Of a DNA stretch of 64,000 nucleotides, positions 9,914 to 61,205 are shown piece by piece. Source of the stretch: Planoprotostelium fungivorum (lineage: Eukaryota > Evosea > Variosea > Cavosteliida > Cavosteliaceae); the NCBI GenBank assembly GCA_003024175.1, contig MDYQ01000017.1, forward strand, positions 124,001-188,000, in the 5' to 3' direction. Within the stretch, counting starts at the first letter, position 1. Every line of letters begins with the position of its first letter. The notes below the pieces were generated by a model. It was not told where the DNA came from, did no database searches, and was given only the letters and a program-made list of their open reading frames with translations. A program made the position numbers and the translations under genes.

Positions 9914-12181
9914 TCAACGCTTGATGAAACGCAAGGCCAAGAAGGCGATGATCCTGCAGCCGATGATGATGGCAAAGAGGGCACCGATGCACTCTCCAAT
10001 GTTGAACTTGTCGAATCCCAGGTTCTGAATCGTCTGCTCTCCCCTCTCGATGGGACACACTCCGTTCACTCTCTGTGCGTCCGTGCAGGTGATGACCAAT
10101 CCAGTCAGCTCGTTGATGGATATTCCTGTGAGGGTCAGGTGATGTGAAGAGGTGGAGGGTCATGATGATGTGAAGAGGTGGAGACTCACCAGTGTAGGCC
10201 CATTTGACGTAAGAGAGTGCGTCGAGCCATACGAAACCTCTCGGGAGGTTGATGGGAGCGAGGAAGAAACCACCAAAGAGACGGAAGATCTCGAGAGCCA
10301 TGGGGAGGACGGTGACGGCAAGTGTCGTCGTTCTGCAGATGGCTGAGATGGCAAGAGCCACTGAGAAGAGTAAGATAAAAGAGAAGAAGAGTGAGATGAA
10401 AGAGAATAAGAATAAGATAAGAGAATAAGAATAAGATAAGAGAAGGAGAACAAGTTAAGAGGGAGATGAGAATAAGAGGGAGACGAGAAAGAAGAATAAT
10501 AAAATAAGATGACAAAGAATAAGACAAGATAAGAAGAGAAGAAAATGAAACTCACCAGAAGTGGAAGCGATGTTTGTCAAAACGATGAAGAAGAGGAAGA
10601 GGAAGAATTTTCCGGCGTGGTGCTGAAGACCAACCATCCAGTAGACGATGCATGAGAAGATGGTGGGGAAGAGGATGAGTGGAATCAGCTCCACCATAGA
10701 TTTTGCCAAGAAGTAAGCCGACACATAATACGTTCCCGCAGCTCTCTCTGCGTCAAAGTCATCATCACATCATCCTCTAATGCATCATGTGCATCTCACC
10801 TCTCAGTGTGATCGAACGTTCGGAAGGAAAAGAGTTGATGATCATGAGAGCAGCAAAGATACCCTGGTTGATGACACAGAAGAACAAGACAGGTTGTCTT
10901 CGGATCGTGCTCGATTGTCCGTTGCCGATCTGATAGAAGACGGCACCGATCAGGATGGCCATCAAGATGGACTGGATGAACTGCGTGATGATGACGAGTC
11001 GTTGTCTGAGGAGACTCTTTGTCGTTCGTCGGGCCAGAATGAAGAATTGGTTGAACCATGATGATCTCTCGTGCTTGTAATCACCCTCCACCATGCCCTT
11101 CTCGAGGTCCACTTGAATGGTAGAGAGTTCTCCCTGGATGGCAACTACGTTCTCTTGGACCTTGTCCTTGTCTTCGGTGTTGAGAGGGGTGATGACGTCT
11201 AAAAGATGGTCGGCGGGGTTTGTGAATTCTGGGCAGGGGAAACCGGCTCTTCCGTATTGTTCTATGACGTCCATCCTTCTTCCCATGGCCACGATGTGTC
11301 CCTTGCTCATGACTAAAACGGAATGGAAGAGGTTGAAGATCTTCGATTGGGGCTGATGGATGGTGCACAAGATGGTGCAGTTTCGGATGGACACCAGATT
11401 ACCCAGAGTCGTGATGAGAGAGAGAGCGGTGGAACTGTCGAGTCCAGAGGTGGGCTCGTCGAGGAAAATGAGCTTGGGGTATGTGATGAGTTCCATGCCG
11501 ACGCAGAGTCTCTTTCTTTCTCCTCCCGAGATACCTTTCACGGTGGCACCTCCTACGACTGTGTTTCTGCAGCCGTCTAATCCAAGTTGTGACAAAGCCT
11601 CGTCCACTCTCTTCTTCTTCTCTTCGTGACTCATTTCTCTTGGAAGTCTTAACTCGGCGGTGTAGTGCATTGTTTCCTGATAAACGTTCGGCACATGAAT
11701 AAGAGATGTTCCATCTTCTCACCTCCACGGTCAAGTGTTCGAAGAGGAGATCGTCTTGCATGACATATCCGGACACCTTCTTTAGGAGAGAAGACGATAC
11801 CTTATGTCCGTTGATTCTGATTTCACCCGTGATCTTGACACCCCTCACTCGGTTGGCGAGGACGTTCATCAGCGTTGTCTTTCCACTTCCAGAGGGTCCC
11901 ATGATGGCCAGAAGACTAGCTGCTATCTCTCCCGATACATTGGACAGAAGCTTCTTCTTGTTGGGTGTCTCTACGCTGAGTCCTTTCCACGCCAGAGTCA
12001 ACGGTGTGAGGTTGGATTCGAGCTCTTCTATGACCTTCTTATCATCCGGGGCAACGTCCTTCATCTCTGTCAGCTCCTGCTCCTCCTTCTTTCCTTGTTC
12101 GACAAATTTCTCTGTCTCTTTATCGCCTGCCATGCGGTCTGTGTGCTGTGGGGTCTGTGTTGTGACCTCGAACTTTCTCAT
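9914..12181 (-). CDS. ABCG (White/PDR-type) half-transporter
   Basis: Five exons (12181-11723, 11676-10800, 10747-10556, 10360-10190, 10125-9914) total 1,911 nt and encode 636 residues, normal for an ABCG half-size transporter. The order is NBD then TMD, as in the G subfamily. Walker A is GPSGSGKTT (about residue 95), the signature is KGISGGERKR, Walker B plus D-loop is LIFLDEPTSGLDS, and the switch His lies in TILCTIHQP. About six hydrophobic segments follow from residue about 370 on (IITQFIQSILMAILIGAVFY; FFLFLFFIVLTNIAST; IGALFAIIIGCRIIAFLALR). Half-transporters dimerise and export lipids or small molecules, usually from the plasma membrane. The substrate cannot be read from sequence. Intron 3 is long for this region (about 195 nt) and is a simple A/G-rich repeat on the plus strand. 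Confidence 0.92.
10361..10555. repeat. Purine-rich simple repeat in ABCG intron 3
   Basis: The plus strand reads as repeated agaataagataag-type units for nearly the whole intron, so the transcript carries a long pyrimidine tract. The open frames across it are low-complexity shadows. It is the longest intron of this gene. Confidence 0.6.
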
Positions 12182-14110: not shown

Positions 14111-14557
14111 TCAACCTTTATATGTTACGACGTTCTTCTCCGTCTCCCACAACTTGACCTTGTATAAGAGACTCGTTCGCTGTTTGATCGAACGGAAGAT
14201 GAAGACGGCGAGATTCTCTGTCGTTGTCACAGTGCCCTTCAGTTCCTCTACATCTAGATCTAAATTCTTGTGATCCAACTTGTTCATCACCGTCTCTTGC
14301 ATGATTTTCTTGAGATCCTCCAGGTTCATCACCATTCCGCTCTCCTCTTCAATCTGATTGATGATATCATCATTGAAGAACGACGTCAATCGGAGACGTA
14401 CCTCACCTCTGACGGTGACCTCTAATACGTAGTTGTGACCGTGAAAATTTGCATTATTGCATTTACCAAAGACGGATGCATTCTGCTCGGCCGACCATTG
14501 AGGGTTGTGAAGTCTATGTGCAGCAGAGAACGTCTCTCTTCTAGAAAAGTTGATCAT
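14111..14557 (-). CDS. 6-pyruvoyl-tetrahydropterin synthase
   Basis: The enzyme converts 7,8-dihydroneopterin triphosphate to 6-pyruvoyl-tetrahydropterin in tetrahydrobiopterin synthesis (family members may act in other pterin or queuosine routes). Two exons, 14557-14402 and 14353-14111, encode about 132 residues, normal for the family. Visible marks are the zinc histidines in FSAAHRL and NFHGHNY, the catalytic Cys in FGKCNNANFHGH, the conserved SGMVMNLEDLKKIM, the LDHKNLD motif with catalytic Asp/His, and TTENLAVFIF with the substrate-binding Glu. The 48-nt intron has no stop and is a multiple of three, so an unspliced reading continues through it. It is called an intron because family members go directly from VRGE to ESGMVMNL. 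Confidence 0.92.
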   Translation of the reverse strand: MINFSRRETFSAAHRLHNPQWSAEQNASVFGKCNNANFHGHNYVLEVTVRGEVRLRLTSFFNDDIINQIEEESGMVMNLEDLKKIMQETVMNKLDHKNLDLDVEELKGTVTTTENLAVFIFRSIKQRTSLLYKVKLWETEKNVVTYKG

Positions 14558-14589
14558 CTCCCCTCCCAATTCTCCTCCTTTGATTTTGC

Positions 14590-15010
14590 GGCTGCCTCTC
14601 AGGCAATAACAAGTGGCAAACAGCTAGTGGCAAACAATAGGCAAGCACCAAATGGCAACTAAGAGGCAAGTAACAAGTGGCAAACAACTTACAATTGACA
14701 ACAATGAGTGGGAAATAGAGAGTAAGAACAAAAAGTGACAGACATAGAATGGCAAATAACTTGTGACCAACAATAGCAGCAGACAACAACCCTTAGCAAA
14801 AGAGGAAGAGCAAACAACACATGACAGAAAACAAGTGATCAATAAATGTAATACATGAAAGGCAACAAACAACCAGTGACCAACACCTAGTAATGATCAA
14901 TGAGTGGTAAATGACAAGAGATAAATAGTGACAATCAACATGTAACAAACAGTGAGAGGTAAGCAACAATAATAAAATAATGGGAGGCATATAAGAGGCA
15001 GACAACTAAT
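14590..15010. repeat. Degenerate short tandem array (CAAGTGGCAAACAA-like)
   Basis: For about 400 bp the plus strand is built of loose copies of a unit near 20-25 nt resembling caagtggcaaacaacta, with drift in every copy (tggcaaacagctagtggcaa, agtaacaagtggcaaac, cataacaagtgatcaa). Antisense open frames rich in Cys, Leu and Ser are translations of the repeat, not genes. It marks the start of an AT-rich, repeat-rich zone. Confidence 0.6.
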
Positions 15011-32078: not shown

Positions 32079-33721
32079 ATGTCTACGAGCTGTGATGCTC
32101 AATGGTGTATCAGTACTGAGACTATTATTTATCTGAACGAACAGTTATGTTGTGACGTCACGAAGTTATGGAGGGGTCTAACCAAACCTTCCAAAAGGCC
32201 TCGAGAATTCCTGAGTGCCTGTTTGAAGATACACCATAATAGTTCCAATTATTACCCTCTCAAGGATGTCATACCCTTTATGGCCCTCAAAGAAGAATTG
32301 ATTGGAAAGANAGACTATTATTTATCTGAACGAACAGTTATGTTGTGACGTCACGAAGTTATGGAGGGGTCTGACCAAACCTTCCAAAAGGCCTCGAGAA
32401 TTTCTGAGTGCCTGTTTGAAGATACGCCATAATAGTTCCAATTATTACCCTCTCAAGGATGTCATACCCTTTATGGCCCTCAAAGAAGAATTGATTGGAA
32501 AGATATTACTACCAGCAATGGAGAAGTACTTCGAGCAGATATTTCAGCAGATGGTGAGAAGAGATCAAGTGATATCATTCTGATCTCACATAGCGAATCG
32601 ATGGCCAATTCACACCAACATGGGGTTTAGGAGATAACACAAAATCATTCACCTATAACGCACGATCCTCTGAATCACAATTCCTTATTGGTATGAGAAT
32701 TTGTAAGAATGTGCTGATGGACATCTCAGGCTCTCATGTCGCCTCAGTTACCAAGCGACCTCTCTCCCACATTATTTCTCCAAACATCGCCCGATTTGCC
32801 ATCTTGCATGGTGAATCTTTCATCAACGTACATATTGACTGGAGTGTAGGTTGCATCTATACCTGACACACTGACCGTCTCTCCAACACAAGTTGTTTCG
32901 CCATTCAGCGCTGAGGTGTGGGTTCATCATCTATACATCATCTCTGTCTTCACCTTTCAGAATACGGAGCGGAGAGGAGATTGTCACTGACGATAATGGT
33001 GGTCTGGTGCTGAGAGACCAAGAAGGGAGAACGCGCACGTTATTTGGGAAGAAGGCTTCATTCATTCAGGTCGATGCCTCAGTGTTGACCGAGAAGCAAC
33101 GGAGGCAAGCCAATTCCATCACATCATCTCTGACATCACGTAGAAAATATCGACGCCCAAGATCCGGGAAGGAGCGTGCGGTTTCGAAGTCTGGGACATC
33201 TAATCACCCTTCTGTCTACGATGATGTTCCTGATGACGCTTTCACAACGGATCACGCTCAACNTAATGTCCGCACACTATGTCACGATAGTGATGAGCGA
33301 CAAATACAGAATGTGCTGGGAATACGGAGCGGAGAGGAGATTGTCACTGACGATAATGGTGGTCTGGTGCTGAGAGACCAAGAAGGGAGAACGCGCACGT
33401 TATTTGGGAAGAAGGCTTCATTCATTCAGGTCGATGCCTCAGTGTTGACTGAGAAGCAACGGAGGTAAGCCAATTCCAATTCATCACACTGAAATCACGT
33501 AGAAAATATCGACGGGAAGGAGCGTGCGGTTTCGAAGTCTGAGACATCTAATCACCGTTCCGTCTACGATGATGTTCCCGATGACGCTTTCACAACGGAT
33601 CACGCTCAACAAGAGGACGACGAATCCCTGGGCGTCGAGTGGGGAGATACACTCACCAATCTTGTGAGTGACCATGCCTTATATGTCTCTAACGTAGATA
33701 GACACCACGTCATTCCTTTGA
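32079..33721 (+). CDS. Unrecognised protein; model disturbed by assembly duplications
   Basis: The plus-strand coding signal begins [20 protein letters not shown] and continues [94 protein letters not shown], and an acidic end ([19 protein letters not shown]). Single Ns at 32,311 and 33,263 are each followed by a near-identical repeat of preceding coding sequence, so the true gene probably carries each block once. The second copy of the C-terminal block lacks 11 nt relative to the first, which would shift the frame and suggests two haplotypes. I recognise no domain. Confidence 0.4.
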
Positions 33722-44523: not shown

Positions 44524-47500
44524 TTACTTCTTCTTCGAGGCAATTCTCGCACTCCTCCTCTCAGTCGGGGTATCGGATGTCTTACGGGGTGTCCCCTCTT
44601 CATCATCGACCTCCTGGCTGGCCAGCTCACTCAGTGCCTTTAGAGGTGTCATAGCTACGTCTCTTCAGTTCATCATCGTCCAACGTCCACAGAAGATGAG
44701 AAGATGGAATCACCTGAGCGAGTGATGGAGGCAGGTCCAGATAGAAGAGTCTTCTTCGTGCTGGGTGCTTGACGTGTCACCCTCTTTACGCTGGTGGCTG
44801 AGGGAGTCTTCGGAACCACTTTCACGGGAGTGGCCGGTGGAAGCTCCACCTCATCGTCCTGCGTTCCATCATCAGTCGATCTTTAGAACATGATGTCGGT
44901 GATGATGATGATCCCACCGAGATGTTCAGGACTGCCGTTTTGGCGGGAAGAGGTGTCGAAGTCGTCTGTGATGAGGCGGGTGAGCTGCTCTCCTCGATCT
45001 CCTTCATCTCCGTCATTGTCGGCTCTTCTCCCGCCCTCAAGGGTGTCCTGAACGGATCAATCTACATCGTTGTAGACGGACGCACCTCGCGGTCAATTTC
45101 GAACGAGGTGGAGTGGCGCGAGCGGGGGCAGTTTGAACGGGGGTAAGGTTGACGGGTGTGTTGGAGATATCCATTGGATCGTTGACGTCCGAGGGGTCTG
45201 ACAGCAGCTTGTTGTAGTCTTCCGATTCCAACTTTTGGATTTCTGCTTCCTCTTCGGCCTCGAGGTGGTCCGACTTGGACGCGTCAGCGAGATGAAATAA
45301 AATGAAATAAAAGACTCACGTCGAATTCTTCGCCGGGGCTGATTCTCGCCTTCTGTGTCGAGTCAGTTGTGGCTCGTTGTAGATGGAATGATCGTTACGA
45401 CATCTCACCTTCATGGCTTCTACTGCCTTGGCCTTATCGGCATCAATGGTGAGTGGTGTACCCTTAGCAGACGTAAACTCCGTCTGTCTACGTTCACTCG
45501 ATGTCGACACTGTCTGAATCAGCCATCTACAACCTATCATGACTCACGTGTCGATTTAGGGGTGGCAGGGGGTAAGTCGATGTATCTCCTCACGATCTCC
45601 GTCTGTGACGTCACCACTTCAGAGGTCAGATCTAACAGATCCTCCGTAGATCTATCCGAGATCTTCTCCTTGATGGGGGCAGGAGTGGAGCTCTTGATGG
45701 CGATCAAAGGTTTGGCGGGAACGGGTGTGGATGTCTTGGCCGGGGTCGTTGTAGATGGAGCTGACACGGGGGTAGATAAGACGGGGGTGTGAGGGAGCGT
45801 TATAGATGAGGGTGTCTCTGCGGATTTGGCTTGAGTGTCCTTCTTTCTACCGATCATGGGTGTGACCGTTGTAGATGGAGTATCCTTCTCCTACCATGTC
45901 ATCAGTCATTGCACGAGATTTCAGTGACATTTCACCGTTGTAGATGGAAACGGTGAGGCGTTCTTCACTGCAGGGGTCTCTGCTCGTGCGGGGGTGGATC
46001 TATTTTTAGATCCGAGGGGAGTGGTCTCCTTGGTAGCCTCAACTTGAGCCTGTCTGATGGGTGTCTGCACGTAAGGCGATGCAATTTCCATCGGGTCATC
46101 CATAAACGACACCTCTTCGATGACGTCATCACCTCGAATTTTCATCGAATTTTCTCACCCGTCAGCGGAGTCGCCGGCCTGCTGGACTTGACCGCCGTCC
46201 TCTTTGGTGTCTCGCTCCCATTCTTACCGGGTGTCTCGTTGTAGTTCTTGGCGGGTGTCTCCTGAACCTTGGCGGGAGTCTTTGCGATGTCTCTCGCGTT
46301 GTTCTCTACTGCCCTTCTGGCGAGTGACATCTGTGTGGCTCTCCTGGGTGTCTCTGGTATGGCTGAGAAGAGAGCGTCAGCCAGCGAGGGCTCCTCGGTG
46401 CTGGTCGGAACTTCCGAGACGGTGGCGGCCTTGGAGGGTGCGGGGGACTCGTGGCTGGTTGTAGATCGACGGGGGGAGCGTGGGGGAGATAAGGCGAAAG
46501 CGCTGCGGACTTCAGTTGGCTTGGGTGTTGGCTCTTGAACGTCGACTACCTTGGCGGGAGTCTGGGAGATCTTGATGGGTGTCAGAGCTGTCTGAGATGT
46601 CTTGACGGGTGTCTGAGCTGCCTTGGCGGGAGTTTGAGAAGTCTTGGCGGGAGTCTGAGATGTTTTGGCGGGAGTCTCAAAAGTCTTGGCGGGAGTCCGA
46701 GCTGCCTTGACGGGAGTCTCAAAAGTCTTGGCAGGAGTCTGAGATGTTTTGGCGGGAGTTTGAGTGAGGGCCTCTTCTTCATCCACTTCATCCTCTTCTT
46801 CAGAGGATTCACCACGGATGACTACCTTGGGTGCCTTCAATTGAGCAGGTGTACCCGTGCGAGTCAAGCGTGACGATCTGACAGGTGTCTCAGAGATGAA
46901 CTGTACGTTCTTCGTGGTGGTCTTCTCGGTCGACGTTGTTTCGTTCGTCGACACCGTGGTGGTGGTGACTGTCTCGGCCACGATGAGAGAAGCGTTGGCG
47001 AGGGAGTTGTTGACTCTGGACAGTAGCTCTGCGGCTCGGTTGGGTAACTCCTTTGTGATGCTCTGCAGTGCGGGCGTGCTGAATGCCTCTGGCTCAGGGA
47101 TGACCTTGGCGGGAGTCTCAACTTCTTTGGCGGAAGTCTCAACTATCTTGGCGGGGGTCTGACCGAATTGGGACGGCTTCACCAGAGTGACTTCTTCCTC
47201 TGTGATCTCAACAACGCCAACGGGTGCCTTGGCGGGTGTCTTTGTGGTCTTGACGGGTGTCTGTGCTGCCTTGGCGGGTGTCTTTGTGGCCTTGACGGGT
47301 GTCTGTGCTGCCTTGGCGGGTGTCTTGGCAACTGACTTGATGGGCGTCACCTCTTCCTCTGAAGATGAATCAAGAACGATCGCAGATGCCTTGGCGGGTG
47401 TCTTGGCTGGGGTCTTGGCGGGTGTCTTGGGTGCAGGCTTCACGGGTGTGACTTCCTCTTCTTCCTCTGACGAATCCACTTCTGCTGCACCGGATGTCTT

Positions 47501-50055
47501 GGCTGGGGTCTTGACGGTCTCCACCGCAGGTGTGGGTGCTACCTTGGCTGGTGTCTGAGATATTTTGGCTGGTGTCTCTATCCTTTTGGCGGGAGTCTGA
47601 GGCTGAGCAGCCTTCATGGGTGTCGTCGCCTCCACGGCGATCATCTCCTCTTCTTCCACTGCGTCACTTCCAACCGAGTGATAGCCTTCGTCCTCTGAGC
47701 TATCGGCCGTCACGAATGATTGGTCCATGTCTTCTTCGTCTGATGAAGCGACGAGGTCTGCCATGGTAACCACGGGAGGGACTGATTTGGCGGCTCGGTC
47801 GGGACGAGCCGGACTCTCCGTCGCCTTCGGAGTGTCCTCGGATGTTCCGACCTTCCTGGCGCGGGGGTTGACGGGTGCGGGGAAATCTGCGAAGGCGCTG
47901 CGCGTTGTAGATGGATCGGTTGGCTTGACGGCGGGGGTGGCTGATTTGGGAGCAGAGGATGATATCTCGAGGGATGTCTCTGTCGTCACCTTGGTAGCTG
48001 CCTTGGCGGGAGTCTCGACTTGTACAACGGCCGGTGTCTTCGCTTGTACCTTTGGTGCTGCCTTCGCGGGGGTAGAGACAACCGGTGTGGGCTCCTCGAC
48101 TACCTTGGCTGGTGTCTTGGTGGCTGCCTTCACGGGTGCTTGAGCTGCCTTGGCGGGTGTCTTCGGAGCTGGCTTGATGGGTGTTACCTCCTCTTCCTCC
48201 TCTACGGCGGGTGTCTTCGTAGCCTTGGCGGGTGTCTGTGCTGCCTTGGCGGGTGTCTTGGCAACTGGCTGTACGGGTGTCACCTCTTCCTCCACAGCAA
48301 CCTTGGCCGGTGTCTTAGCGGGTGTCTTTGCTGCCTTGACGGGTGCTTGAGTTGCCTTGGCGGGTGTCTTGGGAGCCGACTTGATGGGTGTCACCTCCTC
48401 TTCTTCCTCTTCGGTGATAATCTTGGCAGGTGTCTTCGCAGGCGTCTTGGCTGCCACCTTGGCGGGTGTCTTGGGAGCTGGCTTGACGGGTGTCACCTCT
48501 TCCTCTGATGATGAATCGACCACCTTGGCGGGGGTCTTGGCTGGGGTCTTCGCTGCCTTGACGGGTGCTTGAGTTGCCTTGGCTGGTTTGATGGGTGTCA
48601 CCTCTTCTGAGGACGACTCTACCATCTTGACCGGTGTCTTTGTGGCCTTGGCGGGTACCTTGGTAGTGGACTTGATCGGTGTGTTCTCCTCTTCCTCTGA
48701 AGAGGATTCGACCATGCTCACGTTAGATGCTGGCTTGACTGGTGTCTCCTCTTCCTCTTCTGAAGAAGACTCCACGACTTGAACGGACTTCTTGGCCGGT
48801 GTAGCCTTCTTGGAGGCTTGGGCATTCGGTTTGACGGGTGCCGCCTTCTCCGTCTTCTTCTTCTTCGCCGCTCTCGGTGCTTCGTCTGATTCCTCCACAC
48901 TCTCTTCGGCGCTGTCGCTGTCGCTTCCCTTCATTCTCTTGCTGGCTGGCTGTGGCGTTTCTTCCGTGTCAGAAGCTTCGCTCTCTTTCCTTCTCTTCGG
49001 TGCAGCCATTGCGTAGTCTACGCATCGAGTCAGGCGAGAGATGTCGTGGAAAACTCACTGAGAGGCTCGATGGGTAGAACGATGTTGACATTTGCGATGG
49101 CCACTCTCAGTTGGATGACAGTGCTCTTCCTACGATTCTTCAGTGAAATTTTTAAGAGACGTACGAGATATCACCCGTCACGTAGAGCCACAAATACTGG
49201 GTCGGGGTGTTCGGTGTTGATGTACAGTGACAGTAACTTTTTGTAAAACGTCGCAAAGTTGGATTCCATGTTCTTCAGCTTATCTGTGGGTAATGGTGTC
49301 GTGTAGGCCAATCTCAGGGCGGCGATGACGTCGATCGCAGTTTCCTCAGAGAAAGTGTAGAAGAAGGGAGCTTCTAACACGCCAAGCATATTCAGCAGCA
49401 CGGGCAGTATGGACTTGTGGATCTGTGGGTGATATCTCAAGAGATGACACAGACCGATCATTCTACGGAGTGATCTGACTTCGCATGATGACAGACTCTT
49501 CATCTGACTCTCTAACTGCGAGGTGTTAGATGAGATGATGGAAAGATGGCCTACCGTTTTCTGATCTTTCTCGGAGATGGGGTAATGATCGAGAAGTCTC
49601 AACACGTTCTCCTCCGCATTCTTCGGTTTCTCTTTGAGTTGAGAGAGAAACTGGAGATGACCGAGGACCGATGGAATGATGGGGAGGTGTTGGTGGACGC
49701 TGGTGTAATACACGTAGAACGTGTGTAGATCTGCAGCTTGACCCCTGTGAGATGATTTAGAAGGAATGAGAGTGTCAACCACTCACTTGGAAAATTGATG
49801 GGAAGATGCTTGTTGCATCAGCTTGTGAAATGTCTGGGACTGCGATGTATGAGATACATTCACGTGATCGTGACACATGTGTGATAATCTCACCAGTTCA
49901 ATTGTGTCTTCTGTTGCAGATAATGAATTTGTTAAAACTGATCGTACTGCATCGATAAGTGATTGTGCATCACCATACCGCTTCTTGTATTTGAGTAGAG
50001 TATGGCCGGAGGGGGATACTTTCTCCGCAACGTTCTTTCGTTTCTGTGAAGTCAT
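44524..50055 (-). CDS. Large nuclear-type protein: helical N-domain plus TPAK/SSEEE repeats
   Basis: The N-terminal exons (50055-49786, about 49742-49170 and the next short exon) encode about 320 mostly helical residues (HTLLKYKKRYGDAQSLIDAV; LRRMIGLCHLLRYHPQIHKS; MESNFATFYKKLLSLYINTE; KSTVIQLRVAIANVNIVLP). A 41-nt GTGAGT...TAG intron then joins in frame to the 955-codon exon 49009-46142. If that intron is not used, these are two genes only 20 bp apart. The long exon starts basic and acidic (MAAPKRRKESEASDTEE), then alternates dozens of TPAK/TPVK units with Ser-Ser-Ser-Glu clusters, as in Nopp140/treacle-like nucleolar phosphoproteins. Smaller exons run to a basic end, TERRSARIASKKK-stop. An apparent 26-nt intron near 46,160 is unusually short. 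A nuclear or nucleolar location is inferred; the N-domain is not recognised. Confidence 0.6.
46200..48800. repeat. Coding minisatellite-like repeat (TPAK units)
   Basis: The plus strand shows dozens of copies of ttggcgggtgtct-type units at irregular 18-40 bp spacing, the complement of codons for K-T-P-A-K. Interspersed Glu/Ser codon runs appear as cctcttcctct. All plus-strand open frames here (WLVSLVWLAGV, GVFAALTGA and similar) are shadows. Confidence 0.85.
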
Positions 50056-50262: not shown

Positions 50263-53200
50263 TCATTCCTCTTCTACCTCCTTCTTATTCGAGGAGAGAC
50301 TTGATTCCTTCAGAATGGTCACGATATCAGCCGGCTTGATTCTCTGTTTGGGTTGTTCGTTCCAACTGTTGACAGGGTGAGATCCAGATGCATGCATCAT
50401 CAGGTATCTCACCATCTCTGCATGACGATCGCATGTGGTTCTTTGTCCATCATTTCGAGTCTACCTCCGTTCAAAACATGGTCCTTGATCTGTGCAAGTT
50501 CAGACGATGTCTCCCGCTCATGCATCACCTCTCTGTTCTTCAGATGCTCGAAGGGTGTCTGTCCTTCGTTCATGATCTCCCTAGAGAACATCAGATCCAT
50601 TCCATCGACAATTCAATTCGATACACACCATAACAGGACACCAAAGGACCACACATCAGAGGCCAAATTGTACTTCTGCTCGGTCATCACCTCGGGTGCC
50701 TGAAGATGATGAGAAATGACGAGGCGAACACAAGGAGAGACTCGCACTCCAACGAACGATCTCGCGATCTGGATCGAAGGTGGGAGGTCTTCTGTTTCCA
50801 CTCCACATGGCTTGACCTGATATCGTTCAGAACTGTTTCATCAGGTGATGAATTTACCGAAATCAGCCAATTTGACCGTAGTTTCTGTGATCAGAACGTT
50901 TCTCGCCGCGATATCAGTGTGGATGATGTCCGACGATTGTAGATACGACATCGCCTGAGCTACTTGTACGGCTCTGTGATGTCGTCAGAGATGACGTGAT
51001 GTCTCGTCTCACATGTCGTATCTCTGTGCGAGGGTCAGCTCTTTCTCGGACGATTTCTGCAATTTTTCGAGGAGATTTCCTCCCATGAGGACGAATACGA
51101 CGCATAATTCTCCGCTCGGCTCGTTGTAGTGCGATAGATATTGGATGACGTGGGGATGATGCAATCCCTTTCAGATTCAGTCGATGCTGACGTGATGTGA
51201 CGTCATACCTTCAGCACGTCCATTTCGTTCTTCAAGTCTTTGACTTGTGCTCCTGTTTTCGATTTCTTCACTGCAACGAGAGTGGTTCCAGCTTGTAGAC
51301 CTCTGTACACGACTGAGAGGTCACCCTCTCCAATCTTCTCCTGCAATAGGACGGAAGACTGGATCGATATCAGATGGTGAAATTTCGCTGGAATTCACCT
51401 GATCGACGGTGGCCAGGGGCATCTCGTTAGGATCGTACTGGTACCAAGTCAGTTGGAGGCTAAATATAGAATCATCACCTGTTGTACGTGCCTCTTCTTA
51501 CGTAACAAGAAGAAGGTGATGACAGCCAGTATGGCCAACAGACACACAACACCCACCACGACACCTATCCATCCGCCTCATCACATGAAACGTTGTAGAT
51601 GACTCACCCGCGATGAGTCCCGTCTTGGATGCACCACTGGGAGAAACAACCGGAGATACAGACGAAACAGTTGGACTACCTACGGTGAAATTGGTCAAGT
51701 GACCACAGATGCATTGGACGGAGAAGGAAGTGAAGTTTTGGATGCTGGTACAGTTGTCACCGCTCCACTTGCCGGTGGTGACGTTGTAGAACAGACAAAC
51801 TACCGACGATAATTTCTCTACCGAAGTGATGTTGGTAGGGATGGTGAGACCGATCTGATCTCCCGCTCCACTGACCTACCACGTGTCAAAAGAAAGTTGC
51901 GAAATCTCCGTGAAATTTCACCTCGATCGCTGTACCATTAGAGTCCATAATCGTGAGTCCGTATATCGCCGCGGACAAATTTGCCGGATACTGCGCGAAC
52001 GACACTGAAGTATAGTTGTACTGCATGAACACTATCATAGCTGGCGCCGTCTGGTTCCTATCTTCTCTCTCCTTCTTCAACCGATCGAATAGACCATACG
52101 TGATGTAGGCAGAAGATGCTCCTCTCAGTCCATCATCTCCCATGGACACCTCTACGTGATCGGAAGAGTTACGATCTGCCCGTCTGATGTCATAAGCGGT
52201 GAGACCGAATCCTGAGGCCTGAGGTGGTAGCACGATGGGATTTGTAGCGGAGGAATTGGAGAAGAGTTGGGAGAGGGTGTCGTAGATGTCCTCGGGGGAG
52301 AGGGTGCGGTTCGTTCCGAAATCTTGGAGGTCTTGTTTGGCTCGATCGTCTGAGATGGGCTGTTGTGCCTGTCCAGTGGGTGTAGGGGGTATTACTGTCT
52401 GTCCAGTGAGTGTGGGCATAGCTTCTGTCGAGTTTGTGTGGGATAGTGTGGGTGTCGTTGGTAGATCTACTTCTCCAGATCTCGATGTAGAAGTGGGTAT
52501 TGTAGGAATGCCTGTGATTCTGCCTGATTCTGAGGTGAGTGAGTAGGAAACCGATGTGGGTGCGATTGTAGAATTTGTAGATACGGAGGTGTCTGTGAGA
52601 GTTGTAGATGTTGTGACAGAAGAGGTGGAAGATGTGATAAAAGAGGGGGTGGAGGTGATAGTGGAAGAGATGGTGGGGGTCGTGGAAAGAGGGGTAGTAA
52701 GGGCCGTAGTGGAAGAGGTGGTAGAGGTTGTGGAAAGAGGGGTGCTAGAGGCTGTGACAGAGGAGGTGCTAGAGGTAAGGGTGGAAGAGTCGAGAGTTGT
52801 AGAGGCTGAGGTAGATGTGTCCACGGATTGCATTGACGCTGGTGCTGGGATCGCACTATCACTTGCTCTCTTTTGACGAGATGTGAGAGTATTCTTTTCG
52901 AATATGGAATCCCACCGTCCCTCATCCCTTTGGATCAACGTGATCACTGTACCCTTCAGCTCCCTCTTTAACTATCCCCTCACCCGAATGATGAGTTCCC
53001 TCAATACTGTGACTGTTCCTGACGAAATTTGCTCTCGCGTAAGAGGCGCTATCGGCATGTATGATATCTACCGACACATCAGAATCAGATGATGACGTCA
53101 TCATCTCACTCTTTCCTAGATTCTCTTCAAAGAGAGCTCCTTTGATGGTAACGTCTCCATTGCTGATGATAAGGTTCGAAGACAATTTTCCGTTCTTCCG

Positions 53201-54732
53201 GATCGTGGCTCGTTGTAGATGGATGTCTCCCGTCGAGCGTATGATCGATCCCTCTTCGTCAGCCGTATTCCCTTCGTAGTAACTATCCACATCTACGCAA
53301 TGTCAGATGGATGTCTACGTCGACAACTGACCTTCGATCGTGTGACCATCGAAAACTCCTCCGTAGTTGGCACGGTTTCGTGTGTACGTACAACGGACCG
53401 AAGAGATGTGACCACGTGAACCTGCCTCCTTTAGAATCGATAGAAGAAGAGTTCGACTCACTCGCCACTGCACCGTTCGATCCATAGTTGTCGTTGAATT
53501 TCGATCCACCCAGGTGAATCAGATCGGCCATCAAGAACGACACTCTGTTCTTTGAATTCTCCACACAAGTGTCTATGATTTTCACTACGTTACCCCGGAT
53601 CATAACTGAACGTTCGATCAGCGTGGATGTGACAGTGTCACATACCTCCAGGAGAAGAGCAGTGGGTGAAATTGGTTCGATCGATGATGACATCACTTGT
53701 GGCTCGAATCAATTCACTCGTACACAGTGTGAATGTGCCGTTGGAAACTGGTGGTGTCAGACGTATTGTCGGTCACGTGACACACCGGTTACGTCTGAAG
53801 CGATGATGACACCCTCGTCGGCTCGGATGCGAGAGAATGTACAGTACGTAGCGTCCACGAGACCGGCCGGAGCATCTGTGGGTGGTCAGCGTAGAAGGGA
53901 GAGAGAAATGTGGTCTCACAGATCAGTGGCCCTGTGTGGCTGAAGCCATCAAAGATCACGTCCATCAATTTCACGCTTCCAGTGATCGATCTCACTGCAT
54001 CGTTGGAGGAAACTGAACGTGAAAGGTTGGAAGATGTGATGGTGATGTTGTGTTGGGATAGCAAAGACACGCCGTCCAGAGTAGAAGACTCGATGGAGAT
54101 GTTATCGACGTCGATGTGGGTGCCTCCGATGCTGGATGACTGAGAGTGAAGATCGCAGTCGCCAGTGAGCTGGCCGTGAGAGATGTTGGATCCGATTAAC
54201 CGCACAGATGTAGAGTTGTTTGTGAACTGTTGGTAGGGGTGAACAGAGATCTGAGCTTGAGAGATAGAAGAATTGAAAAAGGAGACGGCCTCGGTGTGGA
54301 ATGTGAGGCGGACCGGATGATTCCACAGACAACCGATGCATGTGATCTGGCAACATGTGTTATCCTTTCAATCTCTGACAACCGCTATGTCTAACGGAAC
54401 CCACCTGACGGATGTTCCTGAAGAGAAGGGAGGCACTCTGATGAACATTGAGTTGTCCTCTGATGTGGAGATTTATGGAATCTGGACCGTCATAAATGAG
54501 CAGGGAATCCTCTTTCGAAATAGTGTCTAAAACAAGTATCTTGTCAATGCATCGGTGATCTTGAACCAGCGCGTTGAATGCTAATTAAGATGAGACACAT
54601 GTAGAAGGTGAAGAAGAGGTCATCACCATCAAGAATGGGAGAACTGCTGTTGAATCGACTGATGGATGTAGCACATTCCGCCCGAGTGATTGCTACACCG
54701 AAGACGAGTATAAGGAAGACGTTGTTCATCAT
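50263..54732 (-). CDS. Receptor kinase with beta-helix ectodomain and GAIN/GPS-like cleavage motif
   Basis: Start 54732 opens with a signal peptide ([20 protein letters not shown]). Many exons follow. The ectodomain has beta-helix/PMP-like units ([28 protein letters not shown]), then a Ser/Thr-rich mucin-like stalk (about 52,870-52,450). A juxtamembrane domain ends [16 protein letters not shown] and [12 protein letters not shown], the Cys/Trp/Cys...C-x-C-x-H-L-T pattern of a GPS (51,713-51,693). One membrane helix follows, [20 protein letters not shown] plus RKKR. The kinase domain has [57 protein letters not shown], and ends KKEVEEE-stop. HTD replaces HRD (non-RD type). A GC-AG intron just before APE best fits the frame. 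It likely signals from the cell surface; ligand and substrates are unknown. Confidence 0.85.
51693..51713 (-). other. GPS cleavage motif codons (C-I-C-G-H-L-T)
   Basis: These codons encode Cys-Ile-Cys-Gly-His-Leu-Thr. In GAIN-domain proteins self-cleavage occurs between Leu and the following Thr/Ser, so the cut would leave Thr at the new N-terminus, about 20 residues before the membrane helix. The upstream Cys, Trp and Cys partners are present at the expected order. Confidence 0.75.
52450..52870 (-). repeat. Ser/Thr-rich low-complexity stalk
   Basis: The minus strand encodes runs such as [19 protein letters not shown] and [19 protein letters not shown]. Such segments are usually O-glycosylated extended stalks. 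The opposite strand shows a Val/Glu shadow frame. Confidence 0.75.
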
Positions 54733-56096: not shown

Positions 56097-57415
56097 TCAG
56101 TTCGTCCAGGTAACAGCGCCAGTCGAATCTTTCAGAGTCAACTTTCCATTGTTATCGAGAGACACCACGAAAGGTGCCTGTCCCCTCCTGTAGGTTCCAC
56201 TGGCCCACAAGACTTTGTTCGTGCCGTAGCCGACGAGGTTTCCATCAGACTGCATGACGAGACGGTTCGGTCCCTGTCCAGAGCTCTTTGTGGACCAGCT
56301 CACTCTTCCACTTCCTCGGATCACGATGTTGCCGTCCGATTCGACGGTGAGTCTGTAATTGCAATCTGGAGATGTGACTCCGCGTCCATCTTGAGATGTG
56401 ATGGTGCTGGTGCCGGACGAAGAGAGAGATGAGCCGACGGTGCTGTTGCATGAAGAGCGGCTGGCGGTGATGATGCCCGAAGATCTGGAATATGATGTGA
56501 GATGATGGAAGAGGAGATGATGACTTCACCTGCAGCCGTTGGAGGAGGTGCCTGGCTGTCCAGTCTTGAACCAACAAGTGGAACCGCAGATATCGAAGGC
56601 CCAGGCGTTACAGTCGGATCTCTGGTAGCACTTGGCTTGGCAATCTTCAGAGCTGCCATCACATTAGAACATGAAACGGAACATGCATTAGGCACACCTG
56701 GATGCAGTAGTCTGTCCTCCGTTGATGTCATTTCCTGCACGATCGATCTTGTCCTCGATCATACCGTAAGGTCCCTTTCTGGAGTTGTTGTTGGTGTTGT
56801 TGCCATTGTTGTTGCCGTTGTTGTTGGAGCACATGCTGGCAGGGAAAGGCTGCTGGCCCATCCAGTTTCCGGGAGGGTTATAGTTGCAGACCACTGTCAC
56901 ACATCACTCATTGAACCACACATCTTCACAATGTCCTCACCTAACTTGCAAGTGGAGCCACAAGCACAACCGATCTTGGTGGTGCTCTGCCACAGGACTT
57001 GGGTGAGATGTCCACAGTTGGCCCAGCCACCCTTGCAGCCATCTCCCCACATGTCTTTGCCACAGGTCCAGCTCTTCTCTTCACCAAGGGTCCATCCATC
57101 GACGGAATTCTTCACGTCGTCCAGACTGCAGCCTCCACCTCCAGAACTCATCCAGATATTCTGTCCGTAGCCATCGGCACCTCCGTGCTGGAAGACACAT
57201 TTCTAAAGAGGATTAATCATTGTCGATGATAAGATCAGCCGAATCGAACTCACATCGGCCCACTTCTGAGCGAGGTTGGCACCATTATCGTCCCAAGTGA
57301 CGGGGTTCAATCCGTATTTAGAGCGATAAGCATTGTGCTTCTGGACCCAAGCGTCAGAGAACTGGCTGGCGGTGGTGAGAGCGACAAAGAGGGTAAGGAT
57401 GGCGGCCTTCCTCAT
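56097..57415 (-). CDS. Secreted CAP/SCP protein with PAN-like and bulb-lectin domains
   Basis: Five exons (57415-57254, 57202-56941, 56893-56698, 56652-56530, 56484-56097) join to about 375 residues. A signal peptide (MRKAAILTLFVALTTASQFS) precedes a CAP domain with HNAYRSKYGLNPVTWDD, CVFQHGG, GYGQNIW, CGHLTQVLWQSTTKIGCAC and CNYNPPGNW. The CAP active-site-like His and Glu positions are mostly retained. An Asn-rich linker leads to a Cys-rich PAN/apple-like module (DCQAKCYQRSDCNAWAFD, ICGSTCWFKTG). The C-terminus is a B-lectin-type beta-prism (NYRLTVESDGNIVIRGSG; RLVMQSDGNLVGYG; LDNNGKLTLKD) with the QxDxNxVxY sugar-site pattern (QSDGNLVGY). It would be exported, perhaps binding mannose glycans of prey or cell wall. 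The combination is unusual. Confidence 0.85.

Positions 57416-59451: not shown

Positions 59452-61205
<1,754 letters not shown>

What the first reader, a model, noticed from the sequence alone, without database searches (positions are those of the whole stretch)
50263..54732. Receptor kinase carrying an adhesion-GPCR style GPS cleavage module
One minus-strand gene joins signal peptide, beta-helix ectodomain, mucin-like stalk, a GPS motif (Cys-Trp-Cys then C-I-C-G-H-L-T) about 20 residues before one membrane helix, and a full kinase domain. GPS/GAIN modules are known from adhesion GPCRs, polycystins and a few other proteins. Direct attachment to a tyrosine-kinase-like receptor would make a self-cleaving, possibly tethered-agonist or shedding receptor kinase. 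The parts are read directly from exons that join in phase; the mechanism is inference.
Basis: partly seen in the sequence, partly recalled or inferred. Interest (0 to 1): 0.85.

Follow-up and report, generated by a model that had tools for sequence, protein, structure and literature searches.

The report
Tyrosine-kinase receptor with self-cleavage motif
A protist-like gene appears to encode a one-pass membrane receptor that joins the self-cutting motif of adhesion receptors to an internal tyrosine-type kinase, an unusual combination; the cutting itself has not been tested.

Summary
The core observation holds. A 20-exon minus-strand model (54732-50263) gives one open 1212-residue protein: signal peptide, about 485-residue ectodomain, Ser/Thr-rich stalk, GPS motif, one membrane helix, kinase. 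Pfam finds GPS (E=8.7e-6, above cut-off) and PK_Tyr_Ser-Thr (E=3.2e-58). The four GPS cysteines, the second Trp and the His-Leu-Thr triad are present; the first Trp is Tyr. The kinase has the tyrosine-kinase-specific AAR motif and activation-loop Trp, but HTD for HRD and no activation-loop tyrosine. Not shown: a GAIN fold (adhesion-GPCR GAIN strands gave no match upstream of the GPS; single-exon folds were poor); a beta-helix; one transcript. In-phase joining alone is weak evidence (137 of 200 shuffles also allow it; 15 of 200 with a membrane helix). Best reading: a GPS-cleaved two-chain receptor tyrosine kinase regulated by keeping or losing its ectodomain; a tethered agonist in cis is unlikely without a 7TM pocket. 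Ten searches of one open-licence library listed no paper on this architecture. New variant of a known kind.

The parts
50263..54732 (-). whole gene, 20 exons, 1212 aa
   Evidence: open spliced frame; intron and composition table
54679..54732 (-). signal peptide, about aa 1-18
   Evidence: hydrophobic N-terminus (Kyte-Doolittle windows starting at aa 5-6); the cleavage site is my estimate
   Evidence: no Pfam family above cut-off; best PDB hit E=0.47; exon 3 fold pLDDT 30
52867..52878 (-). RQKR, aa 505-508, furin/kexin-like site (motif recalled)
52396..52845 (-). mucin-like stalk, aa 516-665, 58% Ser+Thr
51681..52386 (-). possible GAIN region, aa 669-888 (contains intron 51876-51921)
   Evidence: inferred from the GPS; upstream strands not matched; exon-9 part folds poorly, pLDDT 42
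51681..51800 (-). GPS motif, aa 849-888; predicted cleavage between L883 and T884 (51696/51695)
   Evidence: Pfam PF01825 E=8.7e-6, 2.5e-6 on the sub-region
51503..51617 (-). single membrane helix, about aa 910-933, split by intron 51565-51607, followed by RKKR
   Evidence: Kyte-Doolittle maximum 3.2
50317..51401 (-). kinase domain, aa 954-1195, with introns
   Evidence: Pfam PF07714 E=3.2e-58; the 60 hits shown of 1714 in the PDB are EGFR, Src, ABL, ITK, Fes or entries named tyrosine kinase
50898..50921 (-). catalytic loop HTDIAARN, aa 1068-1075
   Evidence: AAR is called tyrosine-kinase specific in PMC8662651 (passage)
50700..50745 (-). GC-AG intron 16; its use restores VRWSAPEV

Best explanation
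The gene encodes a single-pass receptor tyrosine kinase with a GPS autoproteolysis motif just outside the membrane. Most likely mechanism: the protein is cut between L883 and T884 while folding; the large ectodomain (N-terminal fragment) stays non-covalently attached to the membrane-kinase fragment; binding or pulling on the ectodomain removes or rearranges it, and the kinase fragment is thereby de-repressed or clusters and signals. As the kinase lacks an activation-loop tyrosine and the HRD arginine, control probably lies in the ectodomain, in proximity and perhaps in the juxtamembrane Y942, rather than in activation-loop phosphorylation. Shown: the open frame and domain order on DNA, the GPS and kinase profile matches, the conserved cleavage and catalytic residues. 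Inferred: a single transcript, the GAIN fold, cleavage, retention of the two chains, activation mode, kinase activity.
For: Spliced model without stops. GPS above the curated cut-off and kinase E=3.2e-58. HLT triad and four of four GPS Cys; one strong membrane helix followed by RKKR; 24 of 24 glycosylation sequons outside. The region's six PDB hits at E up to 10 are all adhesion GPCRs aligned at the GPS, though none is significant alone, E 0.11-0.96. The 60 kinase hits shown of 1714 are EGFR, Src, ABL, ITK, Fes or entries named tyrosine kinase. The VAVKK lysine, catalytic Asp and Asn, DFG and APE are present.
Against: No transcript evidence. A GAIN fold was not found upstream of the GPS by sequence: a profile of four adhesion-GPCR chains aligned only to the GPS; its pre-GPS part gave no hit in aa 669-849, whereas 927 of 2000 shuffles were reported as hits; summed local alignment scores were reached by 967 of 1000 shuffles. 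Single-exon folds were uninformative. In-phase joining between GPS and kinase is common by chance (137 of 200 shuffles, 15 of 200 with a membrane helix), and the real stretch allows 300 open paths, 48 with a helix, so its exact splicing is uncertain. No relative was found in the two collections scanned, which hold viral and prokaryotic contigs. HRD is HTD and the third loop glycine is Ser, so kinase activity is not certain.
Confidence: 0.6

Rival explanations
1. Receptor tyrosine kinase whose GPS is only structural: the motif folds but is not cut, or cutting has no signalling role, and the receptor signals by ligand-induced dimerisation.
For: Cutting and kinase signalling need not be coupled; the first GPS Trp is Tyr (sequence; alignment); no tethered-agonist target exists in a single-pass protein; no GAIN sequence match upstream.
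Against: The cleavage triad His-Leu-Thr and the four Cys are intact; the triad would not be needed for a structural role only.
Confidence: 0.25
2. Two transcripts or isoforms: a secreted or membrane GPS protein ending after exon 10 or 11, and a separate cytosolic kinase starting near M947.
For: Retention of intron 10 or 11 ends the GPS frame early (ORFs ending at 51498 and 51449); an in-frame ATG exists at M947 (sequence); chance in-phase joins are common.
Against: Only 349 bases separate the GPS end and the kinase glycine loop, in the model 207 of exon and 142 of three short introns, which leaves little room for a gene end and a promoter; the helix ends in RKKR and runs on in phase.
Confidence: 0.1
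3. Adhesion-GPCR-like tethered agonist: the new TNFTV end acts in cis on the receptor or in trans on a partner 7TM.
For: The end after the cut begins TNF, like adhesion-GPCR chains in the alignments.
Against: No 7TM domain; a linker of about 25 residues; the sequence departs from the TxFAVLM consensus (PMC12716839, passage) after TNFTV.
Confidence: 0.05

Closest known systems
Adhesion GPCRs (GPS/GAIN)
   Same: GPS motif with four Cys and the HLT cleavage triad between a large ectodomain and the membrane
   Different: one membrane helix and a kinase instead of 7TM; GAIN fold not demonstrated; the TA consensus TxFAVLM (PMC12716839, passage) is only partly kept
Polycystin-1 family
   Same: GAIN/GPS in a non-classical receptor (PMC13197933, passage)
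   Different: 11 membrane helices and no kinase (recalled)
Receptor tyrosine kinases, including single-pass ones of Acanthamoeba and Physarum
   Same: membrane helix plus tyrosine-type kinase; seven of the 22 Acanthamoeba PTKs have predicted membrane domains (PMC4053784, passages); three of four full-consensus Physarum tyrosine kinases are single-pass (PMC4758236, section 28)
   Different: the word GPS does not occur in the main text of either paper
Choanoflagellate GPCR-TK and GPCR-TKL/K
   Same: fusion of a receptor with a C-terminal kinase (PMC12716839, section 26)
   Different: those carry 7TM; this has one helix

Membership tests
GPS motif proteins | Pfam GPS profile above cut-off | tested here: met
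   26.6 bits against 22.5
GPS motif proteins | four Cys and the HL/T cleavage triad | tested here: met
   C850, C865, C878, C880; H882 L883 T884
GAIN domain | GAIN fold upstream of and including the GPS | tested here: inconclusive
   upstream strands not matched by sequence; partial-exon fold pLDDT 42; the spliced domain was not folded
Adhesion GPCR | 7TM after the GPS | tested here: not met
   one helix, then kinase
Autoproteolysed receptor | cleavage into two chains | not testable with these tools
   needs expression and immunoblot
Tyrosine kinase group | AAR motif and activation-loop Trp (PMC8662651, passage) | tested here: met
   HTDIAARN and VRWSAPE
Receptor tyrosine kinase | signal peptide, ectodomain, one helix and kinase in one chain | tested here: met
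   on the gene model only
Receptor tyrosine kinase | activation-loop tyrosine and HRD Arg, common but not required in the group (recalled) | tested here: not met
   no Tyr between D1087 and E1115; HTD
Right-handed beta-helix ectodomain | beta-helix repeats or fold | tested here: inconclusive

The most novel reading that the evidence does not exclude
A self-cleaving, two-chain receptor tyrosine kinase outside animals, in which the GPS/GAIN module gates a kinase with no activation-loop tyrosine: the ectodomain, not loop phosphorylation, would be the switch. It would show that GPS cleavage works as a general receptor-gating device independent of GPCRs.
Probability: 0.35. Interest if true: 0.78.

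Novelty: new variant of a known kind. Interest (0 to 1): 0.55.

Why it matters
A survey of GPCRs in eight amoebozoans reports no GAIN domain in their family-2 GPCRs (PMC10445921, passage), and another paper places GAIN-7TM linkage in stem holozoans while noting that both domains occur in other genes of non-holozoans (PMC12716839, passages). It would also give a simple system to ask whether GPS cleavage alone can gate a receptor, without the tethered-agonist/7TM machinery.

Tried and rejected
Tethered agonism in cis: rejected as the main mechanism, as no 7TM is present. A paralogue in the window: tblastn of the protein at E up to 1 found only the gene itself. Relatives in viral contigs and genome contigs: one scan each, 1 and 15 pattern matches, none confirmed; eukaryotes are not held there. 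Own genome: none held. Exon-3 and partial GAIN folds: low confidence, not used, so no fold search was run. Upstream GAIN strands by profile and by local alignment: negative. NCBIfam on the kinase: 14 prokaryotic models, each below its cut-off. The first gene model broke frame after exon 17 because I had placed intron 17 two bases off; corrected. A GT donor for intron 16 was rejected, because the nearest ones remove or break VRWS before APE (read by eye).

Full report
What is there. The minus strand from 54732 to 50263 carries a gene model of 20 exons and 19 introns of 37-58 nt. Spliced, it is open from ATG to stop and gives 1212 residues (a first version had one splice site misplaced). Eighteen introns are GT-AG; intron 16 is GC-AG, chosen because it restores VRWSAPEV, the usual start of kinase subdomain VIII (recalled). 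The order of parts is: signal peptide; ectodomain to about residue 504; an RQKR site; a stalk (aa 516-665) of 58% Ser+Thr; about 220 further residues (aa 669-888) ending in a GPS motif; a linker of about 25 residues; one membrane helix (about aa 910-933) followed by RKKR; a kinase (aa 954-1195); and a short tail.

Is it more than chance? The two ends are. Pfam gives GPS at E=8.7e-6 (26.6 bits, cut-off 22.5) and PK_Tyr_Ser-Thr at E=3.2e-58. The GPS has its four cysteines, with no other cysteine between residues 360 and 849, and His882-Leu883-Thr884; the first of the two usual tryptophans is a tyrosine (alignments). The six PDB sequences listed for the region at E up to 10 are all adhesion GPCRs aligned at the GPS, but their E-values are 0.11 to 0.96, so they add colour rather than proof. 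The real stretch allowed 300 open paths, 48 with a helix, so the exact splicing there is not certain. In favour of one gene are a strong helix (Kyte-Doolittle 3.2) with a basic stop and 24 of 24 glycosylation sequons lying outside it, and the small space for a gene end and a promoter.

Kinase type. The 60 PDB hits shown (of 1714 at E up to 1e-10) are EGFR, Src, ABL, ITK, Fes or entries named tyrosine kinase. [quoted passage not shown] Both are here ([10 protein letters not shown] before SAPE). The VAVKK lysine, catalytic aspartate, asparagine, DFG and APE are kept. The HRD arginine is threonine and there is no tyrosine between D1087 and E1115. From general knowledge of kinases, loss of both suggests a kinase not switched by activation-loop phosphorylation; that is inference.

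GAIN fold. This is open. In adhesion GPCRs the GPS is the last part of the GAIN domain (knowledge of the family). A profile made from four solved chains (latrophilin-1, ADGRL3, two ADGRG6) aligned to this protein only over the GPS, aa 849-888. Its pre-GPS part gave no hit in the 181 residues before the GPS (aa 669-849), while 927 of 2000 shuffles of those residues were reported as hits, and summed local alignment scores were reached by 967 of 1000 shuffles. Only the last two or so GAIN strands were tested in this way. Folding single exons gave mean pLDDT 30 and 42, too low to use. The beta-helix reading of the ectodomain is likewise unconfirmed.

How it most likely works. The intact cleavage triad suggests cutting at L883/T884 during folding, leaving a two-chain receptor. 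With one helix there is no 7TM pocket for the new N-terminus, so an adhesion-GPCR-style tethered agonist in cis is unlikely. Release or rearrangement of the ectodomain, perhaps under force along the mucin-like stalk, would change clustering or remove a brake on the kinase. The RQKR site may add a second cut. None of this is shown experimentally.

What is known. Amoebozoa have membrane tyrosine kinases: seven of 22 in Acanthamoeba have predicted membrane domains (PMC4053784, passages), and three of four full-consensus ones in Physarum are single-pass (PMC4758236, section 28). Fusions of 7TM with kinase domains are reported in choanoflagellates, oomycetes and amoebozoans (PMC12716839, section 26). 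A survey of eight amoebozoans found no GAIN domain in their family-2 GPCRs (PMC10445921, passage). GAIN is said to occur in other genes of non-holozoans (PMC12716839, passage). Ten searches of an open-licence library listed no paper that by title or abstract start is about a single-pass GPS tyrosine kinase; some searches listed only 20 of 37, 50 and 36 papers, one search listed 5 of 6, and one search found none. Of seven papers (PMC12716839, PMC4053784, PMC4758236, PMC13197933, PMC9283941, PMC10445921, PMC8662651) I saw passages, and of two of them one section each; none was read whole. The library lacks most subscription papers, and databases of predicted proteins were not searched, so the architecture may already be annotated somewhere.

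Verdict. The architecture is supported on the DNA and unusual: a new domain combination of two known kinds. The self-cleavage claim is plausible and untested; the GAIN claim is undecided.

Noticed in passing
window 52867-52878 (-): RQKR, a furin/kexin-like site, at the border of ectodomain and mucin stalk; a possible second processing site (motif recalled).
   Followed up: no
window 50700-50745 (-): GC-AG intron inside the kinase activation segment, beside 18 GT-AG introns of the same gene.
   Followed up: partly
window 50691-50921 (-): Kinase with HTD for HRD and no activation-loop tyrosine although otherwise tyrosine-kinase type.
   Followed up: partly
window 56097-56525 (-): ORF resembling bulb-type mannose lectin B_lectin, 31.0 bits against a cut-off of 32.4.
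   Followed up: no
window 46142-49054 (-): 970-codon ORF rich in TPAK-type repeats and acidic runs, no Pfam family at E up to 0.001.
   Followed up: no
window 59452-59943 (-): ORF with a match to glycosyl hydrolase family 14 (30.7 bits, cut-off 27).
   Followed up: no
window 14111-14623 (-): 6-pyruvoyl tetrahydropterin synthase ORF (E=1.6e-33).
   Followed up: no
window 10777-11718 (-): ORF with ABC transporter and ABC-2 membrane domains.
   Followed up: no
window 32875-33468 (+): ORF in which a stretch ([34 protein letters not shown]...) appears twice with an ambiguous residue between; possibly an assembly artefact.
   Followed up: no
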